A DNA stretch of 45,547 nt from a virus: positions 1 to 45,547 of IMG/VR virus record IMGVR_UViG_3300032291_004435. One strand, 5' to 3'. Position numbers and translations under genes: made by a program. Below the pieces are notes generated by a model that had not been told where the DNA came from, searched no databases, and saw only the letters and a list, made by a program, of their open reading frames with translations. Of this stretch, positions 1 to 40,582 are shown in pieces; position 1 is the first letter of the stretch, and each line of letters begins with the position of its first letter.

Positions 1-1506
1 AGCAGCGGTGATACTACCATAATCGGTGACAGGGAATCGCTTTTCTGCAGGCAATGCAAAATCTCCGCCAGCGCCTTGATTGCGCTGACGACCCTTCGCA
101 AGAATATCAGCACGAGAAGCTTTGAGCGATGTTGGCTTCTCTCGCTTTAATCTCATTTTATCAACCTGCTCCGACGACCAATTAAGACCGTCATCCCCAC
201 CGTGCATCATCCAATTAATATATGCAGCTGAAGGGTCAGCGCGATTGCCCCAATCATCGGTTCTGTCACCTGTATGGCGTTGCAGATATGCATGCATGGT
301 TCTGATATCATCATCGCCAAGCTCACTGCGGTTTGCTATCTTACGTGCAAGTGATATCATTGCTGACGAGCCACCGCGCTTGAAATAGAATTGCAAATCC
401 AATCCGCGTATTGCATTGGTTGAAGCGCTTTGCGATGGTTTGCGGTCAATTTCTGGTTTGTCTGATTTATAATTACGCATACTTTTCTCATATGCAGAAA
501 CGACAGAATCAACCCAATACGGAGTGTGCATCCCATTGAGCTGATACGCAAGCCATTCCTGCGTCATTGGTTCTTCATTTTTGTGAGATTTTACTGTGCT
601 TTTTGGGCTACCCGCAATAACTTTGCCACTTCCATATGTACGATTACTTTCGCGTGCTGGCTTGCTTGCTCGGCTTCTCGATGCATTATTACGGCGCTCA
701 AGTTTAGCCTGCTGCTCGGCAAGTGCTTGTTCTTCTGGGCTGCCATACATTTGCTCATACATAGCTCGCTCGTATTCAGCTTGTGCTTCTTCTTGCTGAG
801 CTTGTGCTTCTTGTTCTCGCTTCATGATAGCGTCGTCACGAGCACGCTCAAATGCTTCACGAGCGGCAAACATATCTCCGCTACGAGCTGCATTGATATA
901 TGAACGGCCAGCTCCTGAAATGAACCACTCTCCTGTACGAGAAGATTGTTCGACAAGGCCCAATTCTTGCAATCGCATTGCAGTGAGATTTGGTAATCGA
1001 CCTGGATTATCAGGGTCGGCAAAATTACTCAGTGCAGCACCTAATGCTCCGCCAGGACCAACAGAAGCATGTGTGTTTGATTCATTCTTTTTTTGCTCAA
1101 CTCGAGCTTGGCGTTTTCTTTCGGCAGCACTTACTCCACCGCCCTTACCTCCGCCAGAATCCAATCCCATGGATGCTAATAATTGTTGTTTTTTAATCTT
1201 TTTTTCTTGGTTCTCAACAAGTTTTGCCAATTCCATGGATTGCTCATACGCGGCCATTGACGAGCCTGGTTTGATGATATTTCCCATCTCATCGCAGTTT
1301 GCAAAATGGCCATTCTCATCACGGCATGCATTACCGCCAATTTTATTTCCAGCTGTTGCGCTGAAGTTACCTCTGGTAGCGGCTTTACGGCGCGCTCGTT
1401 TTGGCAATGTACTTAGTTTTTGCGGAGTCTCTTTTGCCCATCGGTCAGCCCATGGTTTGTTGTTTGCAAAAGCCCATCGCCATTGTGCTTGACTACGAAA
1501 TGGCAT
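1..1506 (-). CDS. Partial head-associated phage protein, DUF6582-like end
   Basis: The reading frame starts at an ATG at 1506 behind an AGGG ribosome binding site and runs off the left edge, so the C-terminus is missing (502 residues visible). The N-terminal ~30 residues are rich in W, R and K. Around residue 60 there is a GNxCRDExGHFxNC stretch resembling the GNxxRxxxGRF motif of phage head-associated proteins. The middle (residues ~190-260) is a charged E/Q/A-rich helical region. Near the end are WMMHGGDDGLNW, like the WxxWGGDxGxxW motif common in phage structural proteins, and FALPAEKRFPV, resembling the start of DUF6582 domains. It follows the portal, gp10-like and zinc-ribbon genes with 2 bases between stop and start. 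The exact role is not known; a minor head or maturation protein is inferred from motifs and position. Confidence 0.6.
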   Translation of the reverse strand, partial: MPFRSQAQWRWAFANNKPWADRWAKETPQKLSTLPKRARRKAATRGNFSATAGNKIGGNACRDENGHFANCDEMGNIIKPGSSMAAYEQSMELAKLVENQEKKIKKQQLLASMGLDSGGGKGGGVSAAERKRQARVEQKKNESNTHASVGPGGALGAALSNFADPDNPGRLPNLTAMRLQELGLVEQSSRTGEWFISGAGRSYINAARSGDMFAAREAFERARDDAIMKREQEAQAQQEEAQAEYERAMYEQMYGSPEEQALAEQQAKLERRNNASRSRASKPARESNRTYGSGKVIAGSPKSTVKSHKNEEPMTQEWLAYQLNGMHTPYWVDSVVSAYEKSMRNYKSDKPEIDRKPSQSASTNAIRGLDLQFYFKRGGSSAMISLARKIANRSELGDDDIRTMHAYLQRHTGDRTDDWGNRADPSAAYINWMMHGGDDGLNWSSEQVDKMRLKREKPTSLKASRADILAKGRQRNQGAGGDFALPAEKRFPVTDYGSITAA

Positions 1507-1742: not shown

Positions 1743-2200
1743 TATCCAATCGCTTTCTCTACGGCGTCTTCAATCGCCTTTACAATATCCTTTTCCCTTC
1801 TCAACATGACACGTTCTGTTATGTTTCGAGGACGAATACCTGGGTGCTGGACGGCTTTAGCATACACAGCAACGTCACTAGCAGCCGCCATAGATTGTCT
1901 TCGCGCAATTTCATTACGCACACCATCGCCAGGACGGAATCGCAAAAACCGTGATTTTTTGGGAAGAATGGCGTGAGGTTTTGTGCCTTCATCTACCCAT
2001 GTATATCGTTGGTCTTCAGTCATTATTGTAGCACCGTCATCGGTTTCTACTGTCTCAAATTCAGCAGGTTTTTTCCATTGAGCCGTGGCCTGTTTCAAAG
2101 CACGAATGGTTTTTTCGTTCTCTTTCTTAACAGCTTGTTGAGTTGATTTTTGTATTTCTTTTGCAATATCATCAAATGAAAATTCAATATTAAAGCTCAT
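1742..2200 (-). CDS. HK97 gp10-like head-tail/tail completion protein
   Basis: This 152-residue protein matches the HK97 gp10 family pattern: an N-terminal helix, then YTWVDEGTKPHAI and, further on, VQHPGIRPRN followed by a C-terminal helix. In this family the protein sits at the head-tail junction or tail terminus of siphoviruses. A TTG at 2218 would add six residues, but the ATG at 2200 is chosen because a GGAG site lies nine bases upstream of it. It overlaps the end of the portal gene by 11 bases. It is unusual that it lies beside the portal and far from the major tail protein gene (27125-28753), since it normally precedes that gene. Confidence 0.8.
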   Translation of the reverse strand: MSFNIEFSFDDIAKEIQKSTQQAVKKENEKTIRALKQATAQWKKPAEFETVETDDGATIMTEDQRYTWVDEGTKPHAILPKKSRFLRFRPGDGVRNEIARRQSMAAASDVAVYAKAVQHPGIRPRNITERVMLRREKDIVKAIEDAVEKAIG

Positions 2201-3863
2201 CAGCAGAATCTCCGTCAATGTTTTCTTTCAACATATTGATGACACCGTCCATGCCATAATCAGCTACTAACGCATCCAATACACTTTTGGGGTTTGAGCT
2301 TTTATACCCATAAAGTTTCTTGACTGAATCGGGCATAGGAATAACTTTGCCTGGTATATCATTTCCATCGGCATCTTTTGTTTCGGTACCTGGTATGGTG
2401 ACGTTGAAATCAGGCTTCGGCAATGCTGCTGCAGCCACTTCGGGTGGTGGTGCTGCTTGAGGCGCAATACCCATTCCCTGAAACTTTGGCCCTATCTTGT
2501 ACAGTTTCTTGATAGCTGATGGTATCTTGATTGGTTCTTCAGGTCCACGCACGTCCATAAGATATGATTCGTTGTCGTTTGAAGTAGCATCCTCTGTCGA
2601 ATCAAATTGAATGAATTCTTTTGGAAATACACCTTCGTCGACCAGAAAGTTTCGCACTTGGTCTTGCGTAAGCACCTGTGTATCAAGAAAGTTACGGATA
2701 GCTCCAGACGCAGCTTGAAATGCGTCCATTTTCATCTTACGGTCTCGCACATCACTACTTGCAAATGTGAATGTTGTTGTGGTTGGTAATACATGATGGT
2801 TCAATGCAAGAGTAAAAGCACGCCGCCACGCCGCCATACCGCGGCCTTCGGCGGCTTCTTCCAGTACTACTGTCTGCGTACCTGTTCCCAGCCCTTGTCC
2901 ACTCAGCGGTTGAATCTCTTGAACAGCAACCCCCAAAGCATTTGCGTATCGCAAGTATGCGTCCTTGCGCTCTGAATCAGCGCTAAAACCGTCAGGCACT
3001 TCTGCCAACGGAATTGTGACAATAGAGGGATTTTCCGACTTAAGCATCGGGATAATTGTGCTTCCCTTGTACACCACATATCCACGTTGATTGTTTGCTT
3101 CATTGCTTGAAGAGAGTGCATCACGAAGTTGGAGGTCCGAGATACCATTCACAATGTGAATGGCCAGATTACGGCTTCCGCTAACCTTCTCTCGGATGAA
3201 TGTTTCAATAGCAGTCAATTTAAGGATTGTCTCGAATGCACGTCGTGCTGCACACATTCCCAGGCCGCGATGCTCAATACGTGGAGAAGGCATATCGCTT
3301 AAACAAATGACCTCTTCATGACGAAGTCGATGAAACTCTCCACGGTAGTCTTGATAAATGACTGGATAGTCTCGGTCATTCGTGCGGTATGTGCGTAAGC
3401 TATCAAGGTGCATAAGTCCAACAACACGAGAACCGCGTGCATTCGATGCGCGGACAATCTCGATGAATGCACCATTATCGGTAGTCAGATAATCTCGTAC
3501 ATGACGGGCCAATCCATAGGAATAGCTCCCGTCAAAATTAAGCATAAGGTCTTTTGCACGGTCAATACGACGAGCATTTTTGGTTGCATCGGATATCATA
3601 AACCCGATAGCAGTTTGTTTGCTCAACGTTGTGTTGACCGCACTTGCCCACATATTCTCTATCAAAGGTGTTTCGGAAAGAATTGCATCGGCTGCTTTTG
3701 TGCCATATGCAGGAAGCCCTGTCGCACCCTTAATGCCTTCAAGAAGGCCAGAGCTCAATACTCCTCCCCACGATGTAGGGCCAAGCATGATGGTGACAGG
3801 ACCGCCGTGACGTTCGTATGTATCCTGTCGTGTAACACTATGCATGCGTACAGAATCAGTCAT
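2190..3863 (-). CDS. Phage portal protein
   Basis: This 557-residue protein has the layout of the HK97/SPP1-type portal family. Visible features are a variable N-terminus, a wing with HVRDYLTTDNGAFIEIV and RTYRTNDRDYPVIYQDYRGEF, the EVICLSDMPSPR stretch, the core helix near GRGMAAWRRAF, and a C-terminal charged region after ~residue 430. Twelve portal subunits normally form the ring at the capsid vertex through which DNA is packaged and the tail attaches. The gene follows the terminase large subunit by 9 bases and overlaps the gp10-like gene, a normal packaging order. The C-terminal ~130 residues are P/D/K-rich and probably flexible. Confidence 0.88.
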   Translation of the reverse strand: MTDSVRMHSVTRQDTYERHGGPVTIMLGPTSWGGVLSSGLLEGIKGATGLPAYGTKAADAILSETPLIENMWASAVNTTLSKQTAIGFMISDATKNARRIDRAKDLMLNFDGSYSYGLARHVRDYLTTDNGAFIEIVRASNARGSRVVGLMHLDSLRTYRTNDRDYPVIYQDYRGEFHRLRHEEVICLSDMPSPRIEHRGLGMCAARRAFETILKLTAIETFIREKVSGSRNLAIHIVNGISDLQLRDALSSSNEANNQRGYVVYKGSTIIPMLKSENPSIVTIPLAEVPDGFSADSERKDAYLRYANALGVAVQEIQPLSGQGLGTGTQTVVLEEAAEGRGMAAWRRAFTLALNHHVLPTTTTFTFASSDVRDRKMKMDAFQAASGAIRNFLDTQVLTQDQVRNFLVDEGVFPKEFIQFDSTEDATSNDNESYLMDVRGPEEPIKIPSAIKKLYKIGPKFQGMGIAPQAAPPPEVAAAALPKPDFNVTIPGTETKDADGNDIPGKVIPMPDSVKKLYGYKSSNPKSVLDALVADYGMDGVINMLKENIDGDSADEL

Positions 3864-3872
3864 ATATATACC

Positions 3873-5099
3873 TCAGTATAAATTCAAATCTATGCATCGC
3901 ATAGCGGCCATGCTTAGCGCAACACACGCGTCAACTTTGTCTTTCGGGTTACCCTTCACGATGCGAAGTTTGTCTCCGCCAGCATCAAAATGTGCTTTCG
4001 CATTTGCAACATGCAATCTCAACGTTGTATCACCGTCATGCACAAGTCTTCGCCCCATGATAAGGTCACGTAAGTTCTTGTCAGCTATGGCGCGGGCTGA
4101 AGATTGTTTAAATTCATTCGTCCACACCCTTCGCCCTAGTCGTTGTGACATTTGATGCAATTGATACGGGTCGTATGCTATTTCAATTACATTATACGTA
4201 TCAATAATGGTGTTAATTTGTTTTTCAATCTCATCGTAATCAAGCACACGGCCATTTGGAATCCAGGTATTGACTATGCGTACCGCAACATCGTCTTTGC
4301 GGTCTTTCTGATGATGACGACTAACTGCAACAAGAGCAAACGTGTCGTTCGAGACGCCTGCGTCCAAAGCCATGACAATAGGGGTACGGTTGTCCAAAGG
4401 AGGTAAGTCCTCTCGCAAGACATCCCACAGCATCATGCTCGGAATAAACGCTTCGTCCGATTCTAGGTCAACGAATTTGCCATCAATCTCTTGTGAGGCA
4501 AATCCTCCATCGTATTGTTTTTGCAGAGTGTCAACAAATGTGGTCGGCAAGAATTTATTTTGACGAGACGACGAATATACAACATGAAAGTTCTCGTCTC
4601 CATTTTCGACAAATGCATTGTATAACCAGTTTTTACCGCGAGGAGTAGAAGAAACCCAGGCACGAGACGGCATACGACGTAAACGGCCAATCATGATTTG
4701 CCATACACGAGGAGACATCATGGCTGCTTCGTCTAGATAAAACCAGCCCAAATTAGGTCCGCGCAAACGGTCGGGGTCGTCAGCAGAACGAAAAACCACA
4801 GTAGTGTCATTCACTAACGTGGCGGTCATGTCGCCAGCTTTCCATTCTTTCAATGCGCCTGTCTTTTCACAAACCTCATTAAAGGTTCGCAAAGTCGCAT
4901 CCTTAAGCATGGTAAATGTTGGCGCGCAAACCATGCCAATGCTTCCAGCAGGCTGGCGTAATATTTCTATTACGCCAGCATGTGTCTTGCCGCTACCAAC
5001 TCCGCCTACAAAAGCCCTGAATTGTCGGTCTGATGTCCAAAATTCCTTTTGTGGCTCGGTATGTTGTGTGTGTTTAACCCTAACGGATTGGGTCGTCAT
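3873..5099 (-). CDS. Terminase large subunit (ATPase and nuclease)
   Basis: This 408-residue protein contains a Walker A GGVGSGKT (residues 32-39), a Walker B GWFYLDEA (D123, E124), a coupling motif STPRG (151-155), and a RNase H-like nuclease with acidic residues in MALDAG (D246), AYDPYQ (D310) and KDKVDA (D390). It is the DNA-packaging motor that translocates and cuts concatemeric DNA at the portal. A TTG at 5150 would add 17 lysine-rich residues. The ATG at 5099 is preferred because a purine-rich AAAGAAGAAG sequence precedes it and it gives the usual short overlap (20 bases) with the small subunit gene. All catalytic residues are intact. Confidence 0.95.
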   Translation of the reverse strand: MTTQSVRVKHTQHTEPQKEFWTSDRQFRAFVGGVGSGKTHAGVIEILRQPAGSIGMVCAPTFTMLKDATLRTFNEVCEKTGALKEWKAGDMTATLVNDTTVVFRSADDPDRLRGPNLGWFYLDEAAMMSPRVWQIMIGRLRRMPSRAWVSSTPRGKNWLYNAFVENGDENFHVVYSSSRQNKFLPTTFVDTLQKQYDGGFASQEIDGKFVDLESDEAFIPSMMLWDVLREDLPPLDNRTPIVMALDAGVSNDTFALVAVSRHHQKDRKDDVAVRIVNTWIPNGRVLDYDEIEKQINTIIDTYNVIEIAYDPYQLHQMSQRLGRRVWTNEFKQSSARAIADKNLRDLIMGRRLVHDGDTTLRLHVANAKAHFDAGGDKLRIVKGNPKDKVDACVALSMAAMRCIDLNLY

Positions 5100-5517
5100 C
5101 TTCTTCTTCTTTAGATGCTTCTTCTTCGACACTGGTGCCATCAAGGTCAATGACTAATTCCATCTTGACTGGTGGTGCACCATTTTTGCCAGAAAGACTA
5201 ACATCATTTTTGCGACCCCAACGGTCGTTAAATCTTCGTTCCAATCGCCATGCAGCTGCTTGCCAATACTCACCTGCAGCTTTGCCAATGACGGCTAAAT
5301 CGCGCGCTTCGGCAGAAGCAATAGCCTGCGTAATTGCATCGGCAAATGATTCATACCGAGGGTCGCCACGGCGGCCTTTTTTCACCCATTCACGAATAGT
5401 GTCATGATGAATGCCCGCCAAAGCTGCGGCCGTTTCGATGTAATTGCCAGCTTTAAGGGCACCAACAATTAAATCTTGAAGCTCTGCGGTAAGTTCTATC
5501 GGCGGTCTTCCAGCCAT
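5080..5517 (-). CDS. Terminase small subunit
   Basis: This 145-residue protein starts MAGRPP and has an N-terminal helix-turn-helix (about residues 25-50, with NYIETAAALAGI then TIREWVKKG), a central helical region with ARDLAVIGKAA, and the family-typical AAAWRLERRFNDRWGRK block. The C-terminus is strongly acidic (E/D-rich). Small terminases of this type recognise the packaging site and load the large subunit, whose gene overlaps by 20 bases. The start is supported by a GGAG site about ten bases upstream. Confidence 0.9.
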   Translation of the reverse strand: MAGRPPIELTAELQDLIVGALKAGNYIETAAALAGIHHDTIREWVKKGRRGDPRYESFADAITQAIASAEARDLAVIGKAAGEYWQAAAWRLERRFNDRWGRKNDVSLSGKNGAPPVKMELVIDLDGTSVEEEASKEEEDDDPIR

Positions 5518-30041: not shown

Positions 30042-30320
30042 TCAATCCTTTGGCATAGCTAAACGAACAAGGAACGAACTTGTTCCTGCGATTGCAAGCC
30101 ACCACACAAACCCATGAGTGTAGATGACGGGCATGGAAATCCAAAACGAAAGACAGATAGGGCAGTTAACACCTTCAGTCACCCAACTATACAAACCAAA
30201 TCGTTGAAGGATTAATCCTCGAAACACATCAAATATATGAAATGGGCCACTCATCCAAGCAAAATCCGTGGCCAATCGATAAACCGCAAATGTAATACCA
30301 ACAAAAATTAAAATGTCCAT
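30042..30320 (-). CDS. DUF1360-like membrane protein
   Basis: This 92-residue protein has two to three hydrophobic segments (about residues 1-22, 52-68 and 70-86) and the DUF1360-type motif VNCPICLSFWIS with two cysteines three apart. DUF1360 proteins are small membrane proteins found in phages and Bacillus; the function is not established. The ATG at 30320 is preceded by GGAGG at eight bases. It overlaps the end of the glycosyltransferase gene by 13 bases. Confidence 0.65.
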   Translation of the reverse strand: MDILIFVGITFAVYRLATDFAWMSGPFHIFDVFRGLILQRFGLYSWVTEGVNCPICLSFWISMPVIYTHGFVWWLAIAGTSSFLVRLAMPKD

Positions 30321-30961
30321 CCTTGTTTCCTCCGTTTTAGAAACAACAGCTCATCATCCCTAAATTTTGAGCGACCTTGTTCATATACTTCGTCATCTTT
30401 TTGTGCTGAAATCCAAGGATGATTGTGAAACAGTATTGAATACGGAGCTTTCACAAATCGCCCTTTCTCGCGAGCACGGACACAAATTTCTGTATCCCCA
30501 AAATTGTGGTGATACCAAACAGGCCATCCGCCAAATTCATTTAACATACTAAAGCTAATCAGAAAATGACATGCATGATTAGTTGTATGTCCGTCACCAT
30601 TGAATCCAACAACTCCGTGATTGTCAGGATAAGTTTCATGCATTTTATCTATTGCAGAGCTTAGCCATTGCACCGCTGGCAATAAATCATTTGCAAGACA
30701 GACATAATAAGCCGCTTCATATCTATTGGTAGCTTCCTGCAATGCTTGCCAATACGACAATCGAGGCTCCGCTGCAATCAACCCATATGTATTGGTATTT
30801 TTTGCAACAGATTCAACAATATCAGCATCTTCTTGTCCTGAAGACAGAACAAGTTGCCAATCAACCCCATGTTTCATTCGTTCGGTAGCGAGCAAACGTC
30901 GAACACAATCCTCCGTTTGCTCTTTTCTACCACGACATGGCAAAATTGCCACCACATCCAT
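30308..30961 (-). CDS. GT-A fold glycosyltransferase
   Basis: This 217-residue protein starts MDVVAILPCRGR, the nucleotide-binding strand and loop typical of GT2-like enzymes, and continues with LVLSSGQED. A YYVCLANDLLP segment at about residues 85-95 takes the place of the usual DxD, and FGDTEICVRAREKG later resembles the acidic GxxEDxxxxxR region of the fold. The DxD is reduced to ND, so catalysis should be treated with caution. Lying in the late operon among capsid and tail genes, it may glycosylate virion proteins (inferred). Confidence 0.65.
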   Translation of the reverse strand: MDVVAILPCRGRKEQTEDCVRRLLATERMKHGVDWQLVLSSGQEDADIVESVAKNTNTYGLIAAEPRLSYWQALQEATNRYEAAYYVCLANDLLPAVQWLSSAIDKMHETYPDNHGVVGFNGDGHTTNHACHFLISFSMLNEFGGWPVWYHHNFGDTEICVRAREKGRFVKAPYSILFHNHPWISAQKDDEVYEQGRSKFRDDELLFLKRRKQGWTF

Positions 30962-32514: not shown

Positions 32515-33981
32515 TTAAACAGGCGACTGATAAGCGGTTGTGTTGAAGCTGCTTGCGCCGCCCTGCTCGTAGAAGCTGGTGCCAGGCTGCCACTCGCGCT
32601 CGTGTTGGTACACTGCGTAACGAACGTCTTCAATGCGTGCGGCCAAGAATGGTGCACGACAGATAAGCCGCTTGCGTGTGCGCATCATAATCTGCTTACA
32701 AAATGCTGTGCCGCCCAAGAAGAAGATTGCGTATCGGCCATCGCTCGACACACGATATTCGTCCTGAGGACCGAGCTCGCCTAAGATTGACTGCATGCCA
32801 AAAGGGCCGCTGTAGTCAAAGTATTCGAGGTACGTAATCTGACCATCGGTGTCGCTGAAGGTTGAGCTTTTCAGTGGCAACAGATACGTGTCAGACTGGA
32901 AGTTACCACTGCCAACATTCAACTCTTCCATGGTGTTGTCGATGATGACTGGAACCTTTTCGGCATCAATCAACAAGAACAAACCTGCGCGCATGTCATC
33001 ACGCATCTTAGCTTGTGTTGTGGCATCGATGAATGCGGTTGAATTGCCGCCCGAAGGAGCAACGTTGTAACAGCGATAGGTGTAATATGCACATGGCCAG
33101 ATTTCTGTCAACGACAAGAACAACTGTCTGCGCATGACCCATGCATACTGCACATCGCGAACACCAACCATATCAGCCAACAAGCGACGGTCGCGATATG
33201 TTTCAACAAATGCGCGAACAACGGTTGCAGGGCTATTTTGGGCAATAGTATTGACAATGTTGCTGTTTACCAACGAATCAGCAGCGGAACATGCAATGCC
33301 CGTTAAGACATCTTTGTATCCAGTGTTGATGATTCTCTGGAGGCCGTTGAATTCAAGATAACCACCGCTTGAGCCAGCTGTATTGGTTGGGTTGCCCGTC
33401 CAAATTAACCGAGCATAACGACGTTTGAAATCAAATGCCAATTCAACCATTGCTTTCACCAATGCGCTGCGGAAAACCTGCTGAGCATTAACATTAATGG
33501 TTGTAACAGCTTCCGTCTGAGCTGGTGTAGCAAACGGATTGTTCAACAGCTTGAGGTCAATCGGTGAACTTCTGTTCACCAATTCACCAAGGTTGTCAAG
33601 GCGAACTGGCTTCGACTTCATGGTCATTTCACCAAAAGTCCATGTCTGATTACAGAGAGCAAGGTCACCTGCCACAGGAACATTTTCGTCACAAGGAGCG
33701 GTGGGCTCGCTGCCAGACGAAGCAGTCTGACCTGTCATAATAGCGAAGACAGGGTTCAGATACATGCTTTTGCGGATATGACCAGCGCTTTCGAGGAAAT
33801 CTTCAATACCGTCAGGACGAATAATCGTCGAAACAATGCCTGGCTCGGTACCAGGAGTATTAAACAATGCGTGCGTACCTGTTGGCGCTACGCCAATGCC
33901 TGTGCCAGATGCCTTAAGTCTTTCGCCAAGAATTTGGCCCAATCTCTGGTCAACAAGATTTTGAATCAACTCTTCGTTCAT
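32515..33981 (-). CDS. Major capsid protein
   Basis: This 488-residue protein is called as the major capsid protein because it follows the protease/scaffold gene, has no membrane or enzymatic motif, and shows a long protein of mixed alpha/beta character with an N-terminal helical stretch (IQNLVDQRLGQILGERL). Stretches such as FGEMTMKSKPVRLDNLGEL, YLEFNGLQRIINTGY and VPVIIDNTMEE have the look of the HK97-fold E-loop, spine and P-domain, but this was not established by alignment. Length is larger than the ~300 to 400 residues of many HK97-type proteins. An AAGGAAAAAAGG sequence precedes the ATG. Confidence 0.78.
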   Translation of the reverse strand: MNEELIQNLVDQRLGQILGERLKASGTGIGVAPTGTHALFNTPGTEPGIVSTIIRPDGIEDFLESAGHIRKSMYLNPVFAIMTGQTASSGSEPTAPCDENVPVAGDLALCNQTWTFGEMTMKSKPVRLDNLGELVNRSSPIDLKLLNNPFATPAQTEAVTTINVNAQQVFRSALVKAMVELAFDFKRRYARLIWTGNPTNTAGSSGGYLEFNGLQRIINTGYKDVLTGIACSAADSLVNSNIVNTIAQNSPATVVRAFVETYRDRRLLADMVGVRDVQYAWVMRRQLFLSLTEIWPCAYYTYRCYNVAPSGGNSTAFIDATTQAKMRDDMRAGLFLLIDAEKVPVIIDNTMEELNVGSGNFQSDTYLLPLKSSTFSDTDGQITYLEYFDYSGPFGMQSILGELGPQDEYRVSSDGRYAIFFLGGTAFCKQIMMRTRKRLICRAPFLAARIEDVRYAVYQHEREWQPGTSFYEQGGASSFNTTAYQSPV

Positions 33982-33999: not shown

Positions 34000-35697
34000 T
34001 TATTTGAACAACCAGCCATAGGCTGATTCTTCTACGTGGTTTAAGCCCTGTGGAATATCGTCACGGCGCAACTCTTTAACAGTTGTACCTTGAACTACAT
34101 TTTGCGTCGAATCAGTAGGTCGAAAACCTCTTGCAGCTTTAGGCTGGTCGCCTTCAAGTTCTTTGAGGCGTGCTTCTAACTGCTCAGCTCGTGCCGCTAA
34201 TTCAGACATTTCACCGCTCTTTGTTCGAGAGCCGCCTGTCGACATCTCTTTCAATGAAATCAACTCTTGTTCAGCCTGTTCTGTGCGAGCAAGCAATTCT
34301 TCATTCATTGAACGAAGTGCATCAATTTCATCCTGAGTAGCTTCCGCATGTTCAACAAGCTTTTCAAGTGCTTCGGTAGTTTCAGAAATTTCTTTCTGTC
34401 TCTGGTAACCGCGGCCCTTAAGCTCTTCATCAACCCGTGACATCTTTTGATTGATTTCATCAAGCTTTTCAATAAGCCGTTCGGCAACTGCATCAGCAAG
34501 AGCTGTCATTTCTTCAGCTGTCAACAACATGTCCGTCGCAGCTGCACCAGCATCTGCACCGCCCATGTCCATGCCCATGTCCATCCCCATTCCCATGTCA
34601 TCTGCTTTCATCTCGTACGGATTCATGCCAGGCATCATCCCAGCACCCTTCATCTCGTATGGATTCATGCCAGGCATCATCCCAGCGCCCTTCATCTCAT
34701 ACGGATTCATGCCAGGCATCATCCCAGCAGCCTTCATCTCGTACGGATTCATGCCAGGCATCATGCCAGCACCCTTCATCTCGTATGGGTTCATGCCAGC
34801 ACCTTTCATCTCGTACGGGTTGTACTGAGAATAGCCCATAGCCTTCATCTGGTATGGGTTCATCATCGGAGCTCCCATGGCTGCTTTTTGAGCCTGTTCA
34901 GCTTCTTGACGTTGACGAATTTCAATCATGTCAGGACTTGTATCATGACCATAATCAAGATAATCGCCAGTCTTGTGTGAATGACCAAAACCATCAGGGC
35001 CAGAACCCTTCATGTAATGCTTCAGCGTTGAGCCTTCGCCTTGCTGCATGTCGAACAGCTGCTGCTGCATATCAAGCAACCGTTGTTCAAGAGCAGCAAT
35101 CTGTCTGTCTTGTTCTGACACTTTTTCCTCCTTGAATGCGATACCTGCATCTTGTGCAGCCTTGTCTGTTTTTGCAACCTTTGTGAGCATGCTAGTCAAC
35201 TCGGGGGAGTCTCCTAACAGCTCTTTCAGTGCTGCAAGTTTCTCTTTAGTCAGCATTTTCTGCCCCCCTTGGACATTGAAAGAAGTAAACGGATTAGCAG
35301 CCTTATTTGGCGGCGTAATACTTCGTTCAAAAATTGATATATCTTTAAAAACACCTTCGCTATCTGGTTGATTAGCTGGGTGATTAAAGCCAATAGACAT
35401 CTGCCAATTTCCGCCTTTTTCTTGTAAAGCTTGGGCCATAGACGGATTAGTAATTAGCCCACTTTCCACAAGAAAACGACCGTTATCTGTAACAGACTGG
35501 AAATCAGTCGTACCTATATCTAATCCAGGGACATGCCAAAATCGAAGCGGGCCACGCTCTTGCGTTGCGTCACCATAGGCAACTGCTTTTTTCAAAGCTT
35601 CAGCGCTAACAATTTCACCGTCCCTATCACGATATGCGGTAGAGGTAACAGCAACCCAACGTGGTGCACCCGATTTGTCTTTATATACTTGTATCAT
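34000..35697 (-). CDS. Prohead protease fused to repeat-containing scaffold
   Basis: This 565-residue protein has an N-terminal protease domain (residues 1-140) like S78/XkdF-type prohead proteases. FWHVPG supplies a likely catalytic His (H55) and QMSIGF a likely Ser (S101), and the end IFERSITPPNKAANPF is typical. A helical linker follows, then a repeat region (about residues 275-395) with MNPYEMKGAGMMPG units, and a long coiled-coil (about 400-520, ELxxLE-type heptads), ending ESAYGWLFK. Such fusions provide a scaffold that shapes the prohead and is then cleaved. It lies directly before the capsid gene and overlaps the upstream gene by four bases. Confidence 0.82.
   Translation of the reverse strand: MIQVYKDKSGAPRWVAVTSTAYRDRDGEIVSAEALKKAVAYGDATQERGPLRFWHVPGLDIGTTDFQSVTDNGRFLVESGLITNPSMAQALQEKGGNWQMSIGFNHPANQPDSEGVFKDISIFERSITPPNKAANPFTSFNVQGGQKMLTKEKLAALKELLGDSPELTSMLTKVAKTDKAAQDAGIAFKEEKVSEQDRQIAALEQRLLDMQQQLFDMQQGEGSTLKHYMKGSGPDGFGHSHKTGDYLDYGHDTSPDMIEIRQRQEAEQAQKAAMGAPMMNPYQMKAMGYSQYNPYEMKGAGMNPYEMKGAGMMPGMNPYEMKAAGMMPGMNPYEMKGAGMMPGMNPYEMKGAGMMPGMNPYEMKADDMGMGMDMGMDMGGADAGAAATDMLLTAEEMTALADAVAERLIEKLDEINQKMSRVDEELKGRGYQRQKEISETTEALEKLVEHAEATQDEIDALRSMNEELLARTEQAEQELISLKEMSTGGSRTKSGEMSELAARAEQLEARLKELEGDQPKAARGFRPTDSTQNVVQGTTVKELRRDDIPQGLNHVEESAYGWLFK
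34607..34866 (-). repeat. Tandem 42-bp repeats in scaffold gene
   Basis: Five consecutive starts (34607, 34649, 34691, 34733, 34775) are exactly 42 bases apart, giving four complete near-identical units; two shorter units of 30 and 39 bases follow. They encode the 14-residue unit MNPYEMKGAGMMPG and variants, with mostly synonymous differences (for example tac/tat in the tyrosine codon). The multiple of three keeps the frame, so the copy number can vary without breaking the protein. Confidence 0.9.
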
Positions 35698-36395
35698 TTT
35701 TCACTCACAGAATTTTTATCAATTGTAGTCCCAACTTTTGATGCAATTTTAGCATCTGGAGTGTCTGATTCGTACAACGGATAATCGGCGAATATTTTTC
35801 CTACTTCTGGATTTGTAATAGTCATATTGTCTTGAAAAGATTGAACAATTGCGCGAAATGCATTTTGCGCAACAATATCATTAGATAAAGAGTCGGAAAG
35901 TTTAGTTAATTCTTTACTCAATTTTTTAAAACCATCAACAACTTCTTGTTTCAACTTTTCGTCGCCCATCGACATAGCTGTTCTGAATTTGTCAGCCCAT
36001 TGGCGCAACATTGTCGTGCCTGTTGTAACAGATTTCATCAAACCAACAATGTTTTTCACACCAAGTGTTCGTCCTTGATTTGCAGCAGCTCTTGATGCTT
36101 CAAAAGGCGAAGTTATACCAACTCCACGTAAAAAACTACCTGAAGATGTTTTCGAGCTTCTGGAATTTTGTGAACTTGAACCGTATCGCGGTCTGGATTT
36201 AGAAGGTTTTCTTTTTTTCTTGCTTATATTGCCTTTATTCCAGGCATGGTCTTCTTGATTATGTTTTCCTGGAAAGTGTTTCAGCCGTTCGTATATTTCA
36301 GAAAGCTCTTTCAACACATTCAATTCTTCATCTATCTGTTCATTATTTTTTTGGGGCAAATCTTTTGAAAAACCGTTCAATTTTTCGTTAAACAT
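35694..36395 (-). CDS. Head-associated protein with LKHxxGxHxQxxH motif
   Basis: This 233-residue protein has an N-terminal helical part, LKHFPGKHNQEDH at residues 38-50, and a lysine/serine-rich basic linker (about 55-85). The C-terminal half is helical (LKQEVVDGFKKLSKELTKLSDSLS) and probably coiled-coil. The LKHxxGxHxQxxH motif also occurs at the N-terminus of the 881-residue head protein in this operon. GAGGT precedes the ATG at 36395. The role is unknown; a minor capsid or scaffold-related function is inferred from place and motif. Confidence 0.6.
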   Translation of the reverse strand: MFNEKLNGFSKDLPQKNNEQIDEELNVLKELSEIYERLKHFPGKHNQEDHAWNKGNISKKKRKPSKSRPRYGSSSQNSRSSKTSSGSFLRGVGITSPFEASRAAANQGRTLGVKNIVGLMKSVTTGTTMLRQWADKFRTAMSMGDEKLKQEVVDGFKKLSKELTKLSDSLSNDIVAQNAFRAIVQSFQDNMTITNPEVGKIFADYPLYESDTPDAKIASKVGTTIDKNSVSEK

Positions 36396-36774
36396 AATCT
36401 ACCTCAGTGATATTTTTTAAATTCAAAAGATGTTCTTTAGAATTTTGCAAAGTTTCATTTCTAGCAATTATTTTAACTGATTTTTCAGACTCCAATTGTG
36501 TTTTGATGCCATTCAACTGAGTTTTTATTTCTTCTATTCTTTGCAGTGTATTCTTTTTGATTACATCATTTTGTTCCATGGAAAATCTTTTTGCATTTTC
36601 TGCTTGGATAATAATATCTTGTACATTGCTAGGTAAATCAGACCAGCTTTCAACTGTTCCTGAAAAAATAGAATCCAGAATTTCGTTGTAATAATTATGT
36701 GGCACATATCCAATCACATCACCAATTCTGCGTGACAGATATGGATTGCATCTTTTTACTGGAATAAAGTTCAT
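36388..36774 (-). CDS. Unknown helical protein
   Basis: This 128-residue protein was not recognised. The N-terminal half has an IGDVIGYVPHNYYNEILDSI segment and the C-terminal half reads as one coiled-coil (LQRIEEIKTQLNGIKTQLES). The start codon overlaps the stop of the preceding gene (ATGA) and AGGAG lies about eleven bases upstream. It overlaps the next gene by eight bases. It belongs to the head part of the late operon. Confidence 0.6.
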   Translation of the reverse strand: MNFIPVKRCNPYLSRRIGDVIGYVPHNYYNEILDSIFSGTVESWSDLPSNVQDIIIQAENAKRFSMEQNDVIKKNTLQRIEEIKTQLNGIKTQLESEKSVKIIARNETLQNSKEHLLNLKNITEVDYV

Positions 36775-37937
36775 GAGGTCAACATCTCCTTCAACTGGTA
36801 GGACAATGTTTCTTTGATGTCAGGAGAAGCTGAATTATACAAACTGATAAATCCTAAAATTTCATTCTTCTCAGAAGTAGATAAATCGTCTCGTTGCACT
36901 AAGGTTTCAACTAAGTCTTGTCCAAAAGAGAATAAATTAAAAGATTTTTCAACTTTTGGTTGTTCATTATTTGGTTTTTGTTCTAACTGTTTCTGTAATT
37001 GAATCTTCTTTTCTTGCTCACGCAACTTTTTTTCTTGTTCTTTTTTCTTTTTTTCTGCAGCTTCTTTTTTCTCGCGTTCTTTTGCAAGCTCGGCTTCAAC
37101 TTCAATCATAACTTGTGCATACATGGAATTCTTCGTGGTGGCATTTGTCTTCTGCACACGCAAAGCACCGCGATTTAAAATGACAACGGTTCCATCTGGT
37201 ATGTTTGTGATTGCATCATATCCTTGAGCAATTGCTACCAGCGATGGTGTATTGAGAAACACATTCAAATATGGTTGAAATCCAATATTATTTTTCATAT
37301 CAGCAGTGATTTGCGTGTTATTCAGAATCAACTGTCTAAGGAATTCTTCGTAACTTATTGTTCTTGCATCTGCTTTCAATGTCATTCGAAGAACAACACC
37401 TTTTTTCTTGTCGGTTTTTGAATATTCAAGAGCCTGGTTATATGCATACATAATTGCGGCTTCATCGTTGTCCTTAGCCTTAGGGTCTCGCACTGCCTGC
37501 ACCGCATATATGGCTGGGCCAAGGATTCCATTAACTAAGTAATCCGAGCCTGTCTTGAAATTTTTAGCCCGAATAGAAGCATCTATTTCTGCATGATATT
37601 TTTTCTTTGGCAAATCTCGCAGACCAACAAACAGCAACAGCTCATTGCTGTCTAAAACTTTTCTGTCAATTTCTTCGCGAGAAACAAGTTGAGGTAATGT
37701 GTCAAATTTTTGAGACTCAATTATGCTTTGCGCTACTTTACGGACATCTGACTGAAGCCCTTTAATTAAGCTTGCAATCATTGAAATAGACATGGTCCGA
37801 TGTACCGATTGATTACTTGCACTAGAGCTGCGCAACGACATTTCTATTGGCATTGCAATCTGTGCCGTGGCTATAACAGCCACGGCTTTTTTACGTTGCA
37901 ACAAGTTATTTAATCGAGCATTGATGATATTATTCAT
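36771..37937 (-). CDS. Head-associated protein with ART-like domain
   Basis: This 388-residue protein has a region (about residues 98-265) with the look of the ADP-ribosyltransferase-like domains seen in phage minor head proteins: LLFVGLRDLP, then GSDYLVNGILGPAIYAV, VVLRMTLKADARTI, and IAQGYDAI followed by TVVILNRGALRV. A conventional R-S-ExE or H-Y-E triad is not clear, so activity is doubtful. Residues ~280-320 are a K/E-rich coiled-coil. The start codon overlaps the stop of the 881-residue gene (TAATG). It may be a virion protein delivered with DNA or only a structural relative. Confidence 0.5.
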   Translation of the reverse strand: MNNIINARLNNLLQRKKAVAVIATAQIAMPIEMSLRSSSASNQSVHRTMSISMIASLIKGLQSDVRKVAQSIIESQKFDTLPQLVSREEIDRKVLDSNELLLFVGLRDLPKKKYHAEIDASIRAKNFKTGSDYLVNGILGPAIYAVQAVRDPKAKDNDEAAIMYAYNQALEYSKTDKKKGVVLRMTLKADARTISYEEFLRQLILNNTQITADMKNNIGFQPYLNVFLNTPSLVAIAQGYDAITNIPDGTVVILNRGALRVQKTNATTKNSMYAQVMIEVEAELAKEREKKEAAEKKKKEQEKKLREQEKKIQLQKQLEQKPNNEQPKVEKSFNLFSFGQDLVETLVQRDDLSTSEKNEILGFISLYNSASPDIKETLSYQLKEMLTS

Positions 37938-40582
37938 TAAGCCCCTGGCTCTTCACCTTCTGTACTACCACGTGTATAGAATACTCCAGCTTCTTTCGCG
38001 TTCTTGATGATGTTTGCTCTGCGTTCTATCAAATCTCTGCGAGTCGAAGCAAACAGCCGTGACATTAAATATTTGTAATCAGTATACCAGTAAGCGCTAT
38101 GGGGACTATTAAGTCTACGCAACAATGCGCGGACAATGTCTTCTTGTGTCATTTTTGACACATCCAATCTGCTTAAAGGGTCTAATCCTACTCGAGAATG
38201 AGATGCAACAACTTTCACTTTGTCTGCTTTATTCCCTGTAATAACCACTTCTCCCTCGGTGTACTGTCCAAATCCAGTAGCAGGAGTGGAAACCATGCGA
38301 GAAGCATCTACATCAGAAGCAAGGACTATCTCAGCAACAATTTCATCTAAACCGCTTTTTCCTGAACCATCTGCATTTACACCAAAAGAATTAGCTACTC
38401 CAAAATCATAACTCCAACTTTCCAGAGCATTTCGCGGAAGGTCTATGTCAATACCTGTCAGAGCACTTGGATTAAATTTTCCATCGGGACCATATAGGGT
38501 AAATGATTTATCGCCAGTACTTTGCCTGACACTTTCTTGCAAAGCGTCTAATTGTGCTTTTGTAAAAGTTACATTTCTATATAGTGTTGCTCTTTTTACA
38601 CCAGCATCAGCGAGCAACTGTTGGGTTCTATCATAAATAGCTTTCAACACTGCTTTTCTTGCTTGTTGCGAACTGCTATACGGTGTTCCTGGTATGGCAT
38701 CCATTGAGCTCACACCCAACTGCCTATTAGCTTCTCTCCATTTCGCAACTTCTTCCATTGCGTATGCGCGCTCTTCAGGCGTTACCTCTCCAGGTTTTTT
38801 GTTGAATATTTTTTGCACACCAGCAGGAAGAGTAGTTGCTTCTGCTCCTCTAAAAGGAAACATAGTATCTTCTAAGGAAAGTGCTGTGTAATCTCTTTCA
38901 AATGGGTCAATAAACCAATGCTCATTTTGTGGCATTGTTCTTTGATACATGTCATTTGAAGAAGACCCCCATTGCCGCTGTCCACGTGCTAAAGCATCTG
39001 CTTCGTCCAACAGATACTGTTGATAATCATTCAAAGGTTTTCCATCATCACCCAACTGCAATCCAAACAGCTCGGCGGCCGCAGCTTGCAAGCGAACAAG
39101 CATAGGCGCAGGAAAGTTTCCGATTGTTTGTGCGCCATTCTGCCAATATGCCATAACTGCTGCTACAACGTCTGTCGGCACTCCCGTACTTTGCGCAATG
39201 TCTCGAATCTTCGCCATGTGGTCTTCAAAATTAAGCGGATTCACTTCTGCTCGAGCTTCTGAATCGGCAGCATCAACATGCAATCCATTTGGGTCAATAG
39301 CATCTGCTAATTTTGCATTGTCTGCAGGGATAACCAAATCTGTTCGCGTATCTTCTACAAAAGCATCAGAATCATCTATCTGCCGAGGAGATGTGCCAGC
39401 TGGTTGAGCGGGTCTTGAACTGAATTCATAGGAAGATTTTGGAGCAAACTGTGGAGGACCAAGAGGGTCGCCTGATGTAATCCCAACTAAAAGATTAGAC
39501 GGGACATTGTTTGTTTCAAGACCTTTGCGTGCGGCCTGATAAATGTCGCGCAGATGTGTATTCATCTCAGGAAACAGTGTCCCTATTGAGCCTAAAATAG
39601 AAGTCTTGCCACGAGCCATCCCATCTGCCATGAGTTCTCCATTGCGCACTAAATTTGTTTGTAGACCATCTCTTGTCTGCAAAAACAAATCATTGTAGTA
39701 TGGCGTGTCATCTATAGATGTTCCAGGTTTGTATTTTTGCCACAACTGCATGGGAACTGATAATAATCTGCGCATACGAAACATAACTGGTGCATACAAA
39801 TCCGAACTGCTCATAATCTCACGTTGTGTATCCATGGGTCCCAACAGAGATTGTAAGTTTCCCATACCAACTAAATTTCGAGCAATGTCCCAAGGAGAGC
39901 CTGTGCGTGTTGCGTGGTGAACATAATCTGCATACATAATTGCTTTTTTGTATGCAGCTCTCATATCTTCTGGAGATTTTGTTGCATCTGCATACTTTTG
40001 CAGAGCTGCAATGTAAGCTCTTTGCCACTGTACTGATTTATTTGAGAGCTCGTTGTATGTTAATTTTCGCTCCATTGGAGTGAAATACATATTGGTAAAA
40101 AAGCCACTGCCATTTGGTCCAACACCTTGAGCCCAATATCCCGTTCGCTCGTTCAACGAAGTGTTAGGTTTGCGGCCTTCTGCTTCATCAATATCGGTCT
40201 GTTCTATAAGTCGGCCGCGTTCCATCAAGTGTTTGGCAATCATTAAATCTGTAGGACGGGCTTTTTTCTTCTGCATTGTTGCAGTCAATTCAGCGCCAGA
40301 CAATCCTATAGACAAAGGAACTGTCGACGTATCCATTGTGTTGCCAAGAACAGCTGTTTCTGCACTGAATCTTCTGTTTCTAGTAGCAAAACGACTGCTT
40401 CTTCTGTCCGAAGTTACAGGAGGAGCTGTATTTCCTACTCTTCTTGCAACAGGGACATACGATTGTGCCACATAACCAGGTGGGTATCTGTTATGCGTGC
40501 GTTGGTCGTGTCTGCCACGCATGTGTTTGAGAGCTGTTTTCCAATCATGAAGATTCTGTAATCTTTTTAGAATATCTGACAT
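37937..40582 (-). CDS. Head-associated protein with C-terminal ADP-ribosyltransferase domain
   Basis: This 881-residue protein has an N-terminal LKHMRGRHDQRTH motif (residues 18-30), a long helical middle part with no recognised domain, and a C-terminal region (~645-800) with the R-S-E signature of arginine-type ADP-ribosyltransferases: LYRN (R669), ESWSYDFG (S722 in SWS), and FGQYTEGEVVI (E776-G-E778, the ExE pair). All three elements are in the right order and spacing for the fold. ART proteins carried in phage heads, such as T4 Alt, are injected and modify host proteins. Position before the protease and capsid genes supports a head location. Target and activity are unknown. Confidence 0.68.
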   Translation of the reverse strand: MSDILKRLQNLHDWKTALKHMRGRHDQRTHNRYPPGYVAQSYVPVARRVGNTAPPVTSDRRSSRFATRNRRFSAETAVLGNTMDTSTVPLSIGLSGAELTATMQKKKARPTDLMIAKHLMERGRLIEQTDIDEAEGRKPNTSLNERTGYWAQGVGPNGSGFFTNMYFTPMERKLTYNELSNKSVQWQRAYIAALQKYADATKSPEDMRAAYKKAIMYADYVHHATRTGSPWDIARNLVGMGNLQSLLGPMDTQREIMSSSDLYAPVMFRMRRLLSVPMQLWQKYKPGTSIDDTPYYNDLFLQTRDGLQTNLVRNGELMADGMARGKTSILGSIGTLFPEMNTHLRDIYQAARKGLETNNVPSNLLVGITSGDPLGPPQFAPKSSYEFSSRPAQPAGTSPRQIDDSDAFVEDTRTDLVIPADNAKLADAIDPNGLHVDAADSEARAEVNPLNFEDHMAKIRDIAQSTGVPTDVVAAVMAYWQNGAQTIGNFPAPMLVRLQAAAAELFGLQLGDDGKPLNDYQQYLLDEADALARGQRQWGSSSNDMYQRTMPQNEHWFIDPFERDYTALSLEDTMFPFRGAEATTLPAGVQKIFNKKPGEVTPEERAYAMEEVAKWREANRQLGVSSMDAIPGTPYSSSQQARKAVLKAIYDRTQQLLADAGVKRATLYRNVTFTKAQLDALQESVRQSTGDKSFTLYGPDGKFNPSALTGIDIDLPRNALESWSYDFGVANSFGVNADGSGKSGLDEIVAEIVLASDVDASRMVSTPATGFGQYTEGEVVITGNKADKVKVVASHSRVGLDPLSRLDVSKMTQEDIVRALLRRLNSPHSAYWYTDYKYLMSRLFASTRRDLIERRANIIKNAKEAGVFYTRGSTEGEEPGA

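What the first reader, a model, noticed from the sequence alone, without database searches (positions are those of the whole stretch)
37937..40582. Head-associated protein with intact R-S-ExE ADP-ribosyltransferase signature
R669, S722 and E776/E778 appear in order in the last quarter of an 881-residue protein encoded just before the protease and capsid genes. Virion-carried ARTs such as T4 Alt modify host proteins on injection, so this could be an infection effector, and the rest of the protein has no recognised domain.
Basis: partly seen in the sequence, partly recalled or inferred. Interest (0 to 1): 0.75.

Follow-up and report, generated by a model that had tools for sequence, protein, structure and literature searches.

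The report
Tagged phage head-cluster ADP-ribosyltransferase
A virus of bacteria carries, in its head-building gene cluster, a probable enzyme that would attach ADP-ribose to host proteins; it starts with a short, apparently undescribed peptide tag that many phages put in front of widely differing effector enzymes, which suggests a common way of loading such enzymes into virus particles.

Summary
They are catalytic-type residues of a real ADP-ribosyltransferase (ART) domain (about residues 640-798), not chance. Relatives in other phages match at E=2.8e-8 (shuffled controls no better than 0.08). R669, E776 and E778 are invariant in 20 aligned domains. The predicted fold aligns almost only with ARTs, though at low Z (5.4 or less).

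It is one copy of a virus-specific tag, consensus KH-x-x-G-[KQ]-H-D-Q-x-[ST]-H-G, present up to 13 times in 14.5 kb of one phage. Tags sit directly after portal, MuF, minor-head or maturation-protease domains, or start tandem genes, and precede unrelated effector domains (ARTs, zeta toxin, SprT-like peptidases and others). Synonymous codons of tags within one contig are near random, so selection acts on the peptide. At the same locus a sister phage has the tag plus a confident ART of another family.

Best reading: head-borne effector cargo, a variant of the MuF-toxin/T4-Alt theme with a different N-terminal module. The enzyme class is well supported; packaging and injection are inferred. I found the tag in no paper of the library searched.

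The parts
37937..40582 (-). Finding: 881-aa tagged ADP-ribosyltransferase protein
   Evidence: ART homology; fold
40490..40528 (-). N-terminal tag KHMRGRHDQRTHN (residues 19-31)
   Evidence: matches virus-specific tag consensus
38189..38665 (-). ART domain, residues about 640-798
   Evidence: phmmer E=2.8e-8 to phage relatives; alignment A5; AF2 core pLDDT about 85-95
38576..38578 (-). R669, catalytic-type Arg on first core strand
   Evidence: invariant in A5; in model strand 135-145
38417..38419 (-). S722 of the S-W-S motif
   Evidence: nearly invariant in A5; in model strand 191-195
38249..38257 (-). E776-G-E778 (ExE) motif
   Evidence: both Glu invariant in A5; aligned with E-Y-E of the Pfam-confident ART of L002
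38948..38971 (-). W538-GSSSND, conserved helix segment at the start of the family domain
   Evidence: W invariant in A3 and A5
36771..37937 (-). 388-aa protein of unknown function, same operon, start overlaps the ART stop
   Evidence: no family
36388..36774 (-). 128-aa protein of unknown function, same operon
35694..36395 (-). Second tagged protein, 233 aa
   Evidence: tag KHFPGKHNQEDHAW
36240..36281 (-). Tag of the second tagged protein (residues 39-52)
34000..35697 (-). Probable prohead protease, with Met-rich decapeptide repeats
   Evidence: relative L003 weakly matches phrog_80 head maturation protease (E=0.027); position
32515..33981 (-). Probable major capsid protein
   Evidence: position; relatives 56-62% identical in five phage contigs; no HMM match
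1..1506 (-). MPFRSQAQW protein cut by the contig start, with second-type tag CRDENGHF (RDENGHF at 1303-1323)
   Evidence: in relatives L003 and L077 the homologue is fused to protease and tag modules
2190..3863 (-). Probable portal protein
   Evidence: position after terminase, conserved order in L003-L006; no HMM match
3873..5150 (-). Terminase large subunit
   Evidence: phrog_2 E=2.9e-41

Best explanation
The gene makes a phage ADP-ribosyltransferase of the R-S-E class, with an ExE motif typical of arginine-modifying enzymes. It is made with the head proteins and carried as cargo. The N-terminal HDQ tag directs or marks the protein for the procapsid, possibly also as a docking or processing site near the portal, minor-head protein and protease. 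The protein is enclosed with the DNA, enters the next host at infection, and attaches ADP-ribose from NAD to host proteins early on. Status of each step: ART domain and residues, shown by sequence homology and supported by the predicted fold; head-gene co-expression, shown as gene order and overlaps; tag as a conserved module of head-cluster effectors, shown; packaging through the tag, injection, and modification of host protein, inferred. Rough odds: an active ART 0.9, enclosed in or bound to the head 0.75, injected effector 0.65.
For: Homology to other phage proteins at E=2.8e-8 with clean shuffle controls. Invariant R669, E776 and E778 and near-invariant S722-W723 across 20 domains. Family members match Pfam DRAT, itself an ART family (8 of 20 at E<=0.1, best 5.2e-8). 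Fold comparison dominated by ARTs. Profile alignment puts R669 and E776/E778 on the YRG and E-Y-E of the confident ART PF03496 in L002 (one search gives E=0.0042 for the S and E part). That L002 protein sits just upstream of the protease of a phage whose capsid protein is 62% identical, and it carries a tag too. The same ART family follows a head-maturation/MuF-like domain plus tag in L088 and sits between tag and protease in one ORF of L077. Tag: 108 of 124 viral pattern hits carry H three residues before the searched core and 91 of these a K before it, neither residue being in the pattern, against 14 of 118 with H in bacterial genomes. Regions before internal tags match portal (12 of 32), head-morphogenesis and head-maturation-protease families (10 of 32 each, sets may overlap). 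Segments after tags match ARTs, zeta toxin, SprT-like and M90 peptidases, GNATs and others.
Against: No direct evidence of packaging, injection or NAD use. P0001 itself reaches no Pfam or PHROG ART model. Structural Z-scores are 5.4 or less and Foldseek finds no significant PDB match. P0001 has an Asn after the catalytic Arg where relatives have Gly, and a long insertion inside the domain. Residues 33-530 have no relatives found. The tag could be a linker or processing site rather than a packaging signal.
Confidence: 0.72

Rival explanations
1. It is an active ART that is not packaged: it is made late and acts inside the infected cell on host or phage proteins, as T4 ModA and ModB do.
For: No virion data exist. 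The gene is expressed with other late genes, and P0001 has no MuF or portal domain of its own.
Against: Relatives fuse the same ART family directly to head proteins or protease (L088, L077). The tag follows portal, minor-head and protease domains in many phages.
Confidence: 0.17
2. The HDQ tag is a processing site or linker: the prohead protease cuts polyproteins and fused proteins there, and the released domains may or may not stay in the head.
For: One ORF can hold up to six tags spaced by domain-sized stretches (L012, L101, L065), and the protease is fused or adjacent in this phage group.
Against: Most tags lie near the N-terminus of separate ORFs (145 of 239 within 100 residues), where cutting would release only a short peptide. 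T4 targeting peptides are also cut, so the two ideas are not exclusive.
Confidence: 0.3
3. The ART fold is a pseudoenzyme used as a structural head part.
For: P0001 lacks the Gly after the catalytic Arg and has insertions.
Against: R, E and E are kept in all 20 aligned domains, including seven copies in one protein of L250. An inactive fold would be expected to lose them.
Confidence: 0.07
4. The R-S-ExE residues are a chance match in an unrelated fold.
For: No Pfam or PHROG match for P0001 alone.
Against: E=2.8e-8 against shuffle controls of 0.08 or worse, conservation, fold comparison.
Confidence: 0.03

Closest known systems
MuF polymorphic toxins of temperate phages (Jamet et al. 2017, PMC5576092)
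   Same: Head-cluster protein with a swappable C-terminal toxin or enzyme domain, ARTs included, proposed to ride in the head and be injected.
   Different: P0001 has no MuF domain; in its place stands the HDQ tag and a 500-residue region without relatives. Tagged genes occur in arrays, and the second-type tag of L250 is likewise not MuF.
T4 Alt (head-packaged ART, injected with DNA; reviewed in PMC9503650)
   Same: Predicted to work the same way: late-made ART carried in the head that modifies host proteins on entry.
   Different: No sequence match to Alt-type models. The tag is unlike the cleaved N-terminal targeting peptide of T4 internal proteins as I know it (from memory).
Dinitrogenase reductase ADP-ribosyltransferase (DRAT, Pfam PF07357)
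   Same: Nearest Pfam family of the ART subfamily: 8 of 20 members at E<=0.1, best 5.2e-8.
   Different: P0001 itself does not match it. Single members mostly score under the curated cut-off and cover only the C-terminal part of the profile. Genome setting is phage head genes, not nitrogenase.
Polyvalent proteins of phages (Iyer et al. 2017, PMC5512222)
   Same: Virion-linked carriers of effector domains in late-gene clusters, with ARTs common.
   Different: P0001 shows one enzymatic domain; the tagged modules occur mostly as separate or repeated units.

Membership tests
R-S-E class ADP-ribosyltransferase superfamily | Catalytic-type Arg on the first core strand | tested here: met
   R669 invariant in 20 domains, in model strand 135-145
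R-S-E class ADP-ribosyltransferase superfamily | S-x-S type motif | tested here: met
   S722-W-S, S nearly invariant, in model strand 191-195
R-S-E class ADP-ribosyltransferase superfamily | E-x-E motif before the last strands | tested here: met
   E776 and E778 invariant; in register with the E-Y-E of a PF03496 ART
R-S-E class ADP-ribosyltransferase superfamily | ART fold | tested here: inconclusive
   44 of the 50 best PDB rows are ARTs or close kin, but Z is 5.4 or less and Foldseek E is 0.014 at best
R-S-E class ADP-ribosyltransferase superfamily | NAD-dependent ADP-ribose transfer | not testable with these tools
   needs a labelling assay
MuF polymorphic toxins | N-terminal MuF domain | tested here: not met
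   no Pfam or PHROG MuF match in P0001; it works like one but is not one
MuF polymorphic toxins | Polymorphic C-terminal effector at a conserved head locus | tested here: met
   related phages carry PF03496 ART (L002), metallopeptidase-like (L004) or other domains there
DRAT (PF07357) | Score above the family cut-off | tested here: inconclusive
   P0001 does not match; some relatives do, best 5.2e-8
T4 Alt | Virion-packaged and injected | not testable with these tools
   needs virion mass spectrometry and an infection assay
Polyvalent proteins | Two or more effector or enzymatic domains in one polypeptide | tested here: not met
   only one recognisable domain in P0001

The most novel reading that the evidence does not exclude
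The HDQ peptide (and perhaps its sister form QPRD-x-x-GRW) is a general capsid-cargo address. Many phage lineages use it to load a whole set of unrelated effector enzymes, up to about a dozen per virion, next to the portal, minor-head protein and protease; this ART is one item of such cargo.
Probability: 0.45. Interest if true: 0.86.

Novelty: new variant of a known kind. Interest (0 to 1): 0.64.

Why it matters
Head-carried ARTs are known, but how phages sort effector enzymes into the head outside T4 and MuF fusions is largely open. A short tag that recurs before many unrelated enzymes, is conserved as peptide rather than as DNA, and follows head-protein domains would be a readable address label. 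It would let effector cargo be predicted from sequence in many phages, would make the function of many 'hypothetical' head-cluster genes testable, and might be used to load chosen proteins into capsids.

Tried and rejected
Direct family searches with P0001 (Pfam, PHROGs) and tblastn in 50,697 phage records gave nothing, as did the close-relative scan of viral contigs; the family was reached only through the tag loci. First AF2 model (residues 500-881, 13 rows) was weak (pLDDT 65) and its Foldseek list meaningless; the second, better alignment was needed. Foldseek against PDB gave no significant hit even then. Scans with single relatives added few new loci, but one held the seven-ART protein. 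Scanning bacterial genomes with the tag pattern gave chance-like hits only. A 20-aa tag query by tblastn found no named phage, but such short queries are weak. The idea that tags are DNA recombination sites or recent duplications was tested and disfavoured: synonymous codon identity between tags in one contig averages 0.59 against 0.52 expected from codon use. The residues 33-530 found no relative in the fetched loci. Considered and rejected: a nitrogenase-regulating role by analogy to DRAT, because the setting is phage head genes.

Full report
OBSERVATION. The window is one IMG/VR virus record of 45,547 bases. The finding is the 881-aa ORF at 37937-40582 on the minus strand. The ORF lies in a tight run of minus-strand genes: ART (40582-37937), 388 aa, 128 aa, 233 aa, probable protease (35697-34000), probable capsid protein (33981-32515), with overlaps or gaps of at most 18 bases up to the capsid gene. 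Terminase subunits are certain by HMM; protease, capsid and portal are assigned by position and relatives, not by HMM.

IS IT AN ART? P0001 alone matches no Pfam or PHROG family and no named phage. Capsid-protein relatives in viral contigs gave five related phage loci, and a scan for a motif seen at the protein's N-terminus gave some 120 more stretches. Against their ORFs, residues 641-810 match at E=2.8e-8; 40 shuffled copies and the reversed one reach 0.084 at best. The alignments place the Arg in 'LYR', the Ser in 'SSWS' and the two Glu in 'E-x-E'. In a 20-row alignment R669, E776 and E778 are invariant, S722-W723 nearly so, together with Y650, T653, Q654 and two Gly before the ExE. Some relatives match Pfam DRAT, an ART family (8 of 20 at E<=0.1, best 5.2e-8), most only weakly. 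Profile comparison with a Pfam-confident ART (PF03496, E=5.6e-21, L002) puts the same residues in register. A model of residues 530-800 has a core at pLDDT about 85-95; of the 50 best PDB rows, 44 are ARTs, ART toxins, a PARP or the related Tpt1/KptA enzymes (my count by entry title and known family), headed by Vis (Z 5.4, rmsd 4.0, 128 residues). These Z-values are low, and the case rests mainly on sequence. The best viral structural neighbour is annotated as a phage head morphogenesis protein (E=4.8e-10).

THE TAG. Residues 19-31, KHMRGRHDQRTHN, resemble a peptide in the tagged proteins of related phages. Thus the peptide is a virus feature, consensus [VLI]-x-K-H-[LQN]-[PQA]-G-[KQ]-H-D-Q-[KS]-[TS]-H-G-x-[WG]. 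In 1,155 ORFs of these loci it occurs 327 times against 0.1 in shuffled proteins (the loci were chosen by the tag, so this is not an unbiased rate). Contigs hold up to 13 tags in 14.5 kb. Of 239 tagged ORFs, 145 have the first tag within 100 residues of the start and 84 have several tags. Within one contig, codons of the invariant residues are nearly as varied as codon use allows (0.59 against 0.52), so the peptide is kept by selection on protein, not by recent copying.

WHAT SURROUNDS THE TAG. Regions before internal tags match portal families in 12 of 32 cases and head-maturation or head-morphogenesis families in 10 of 32 each, sets that may overlap (details). Of 150 non-redundant segments after tags, Pfam hits include ADPrib_exo_Tox (11), DUF3626 (15), SprT-like (5), zeta toxin (4), DRAT, M90 peptidase, NAD:arginine ART, GNATs, 2'-5' RNA ligase and MuF. 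The most frequent tagged protein has a C-terminal domain also found in 'minor head' or 'head morphogenesis' proteins of pneumococcal phages. The ART family of P0001 occurs after a head-maturation/MuF-like domain and a tag (L088), after a tag and before the protease in one ORF (L077, ART motif present but divergent), and seven times in a 2,892-aa protein (L250), each copy preceded by a second peptide of the type K-x-[FY]-D-P-x-Q-P-R-D-E-x-G-R-W. One contig carries both tag types (L252).

HOW IT PROBABLY WORKS. The protein is made with the head proteins, is brought into or onto the procapsid with the help of the tag, leaves with the DNA, and modifies host proteins, probably at arginines given the ExE motif. 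Shown: domain, residues, gene order, tag recurrence, fusions in relatives. Inferred: packaging, injection, target and benefit.

KNOWN OR NEW. Head-carried ARTs and MuF-fused toxins are known (PMC5576092, PMC9503650, PMC5512222). P0001 lacks MuF and is not a polyvalent protein by domain count. Text searches of 5.39 million open papers for the tag letters, its sister tag and related phrases found nothing; closed papers and preprints are not covered. I rate it a new variant of a known kind: the enzyme is a new, divergent member, the tag the part that may be new.

Noticed in passing
L250:1593-10271 (+): A 2,892-aa phage protein holds seven complete ART domains of this family, each with R, S and ExE kept and each preceded by a QPRD-x-x-GRW-type peptide, plus two stretches with a peptidase-like HExxH motif.
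   Followed up: partly
window:1303-1323 (-); L250, L252, L003-L006, L077: A second peptide, RD-x-x-G-[RKH]-[WF], takes the place of the HDQ tag before effector or head-protein regions; both types can occur in one phage.
   Followed up: partly
L012:3-6191 (-): One 2,063-aa ORF with six HDQ tags, a RadC/JAB-like match and a MuF domain towards its end: a polyprotein of tagged modules.
   Followed up: partly
L004:6422-7618 and L077:6892-8061: The tagged protein at this head locus in related phages has an HETLH zinc-peptidase-like motif and (L004) a weak Tox-MPTase4 match.
   Followed up: partly
window:31454-32593 and 30308-30961 (-): Two glycosyltransferase-like genes lie just after the capsid gene, and the order is kept in related phages.
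   Followed up: no
window:34000-35697 (-): The probable protease carries a Met-rich decapeptide repeat (GMNPYEMKGAGMMP) after its catalytic part, absent in its relative in L002.
   Followed up: no
window:6211-6969 (-): PAPS-reductase-like gene (phrog_2302, E=3.4e-17) between the tail genes and the terminase.
   Followed up: no
L018:4047-13682 (-): Array of eight tagged genes in a row, including a zeta toxin-like kinase, a SprT-like peptidase and two ARTs.
   Followed up: partly
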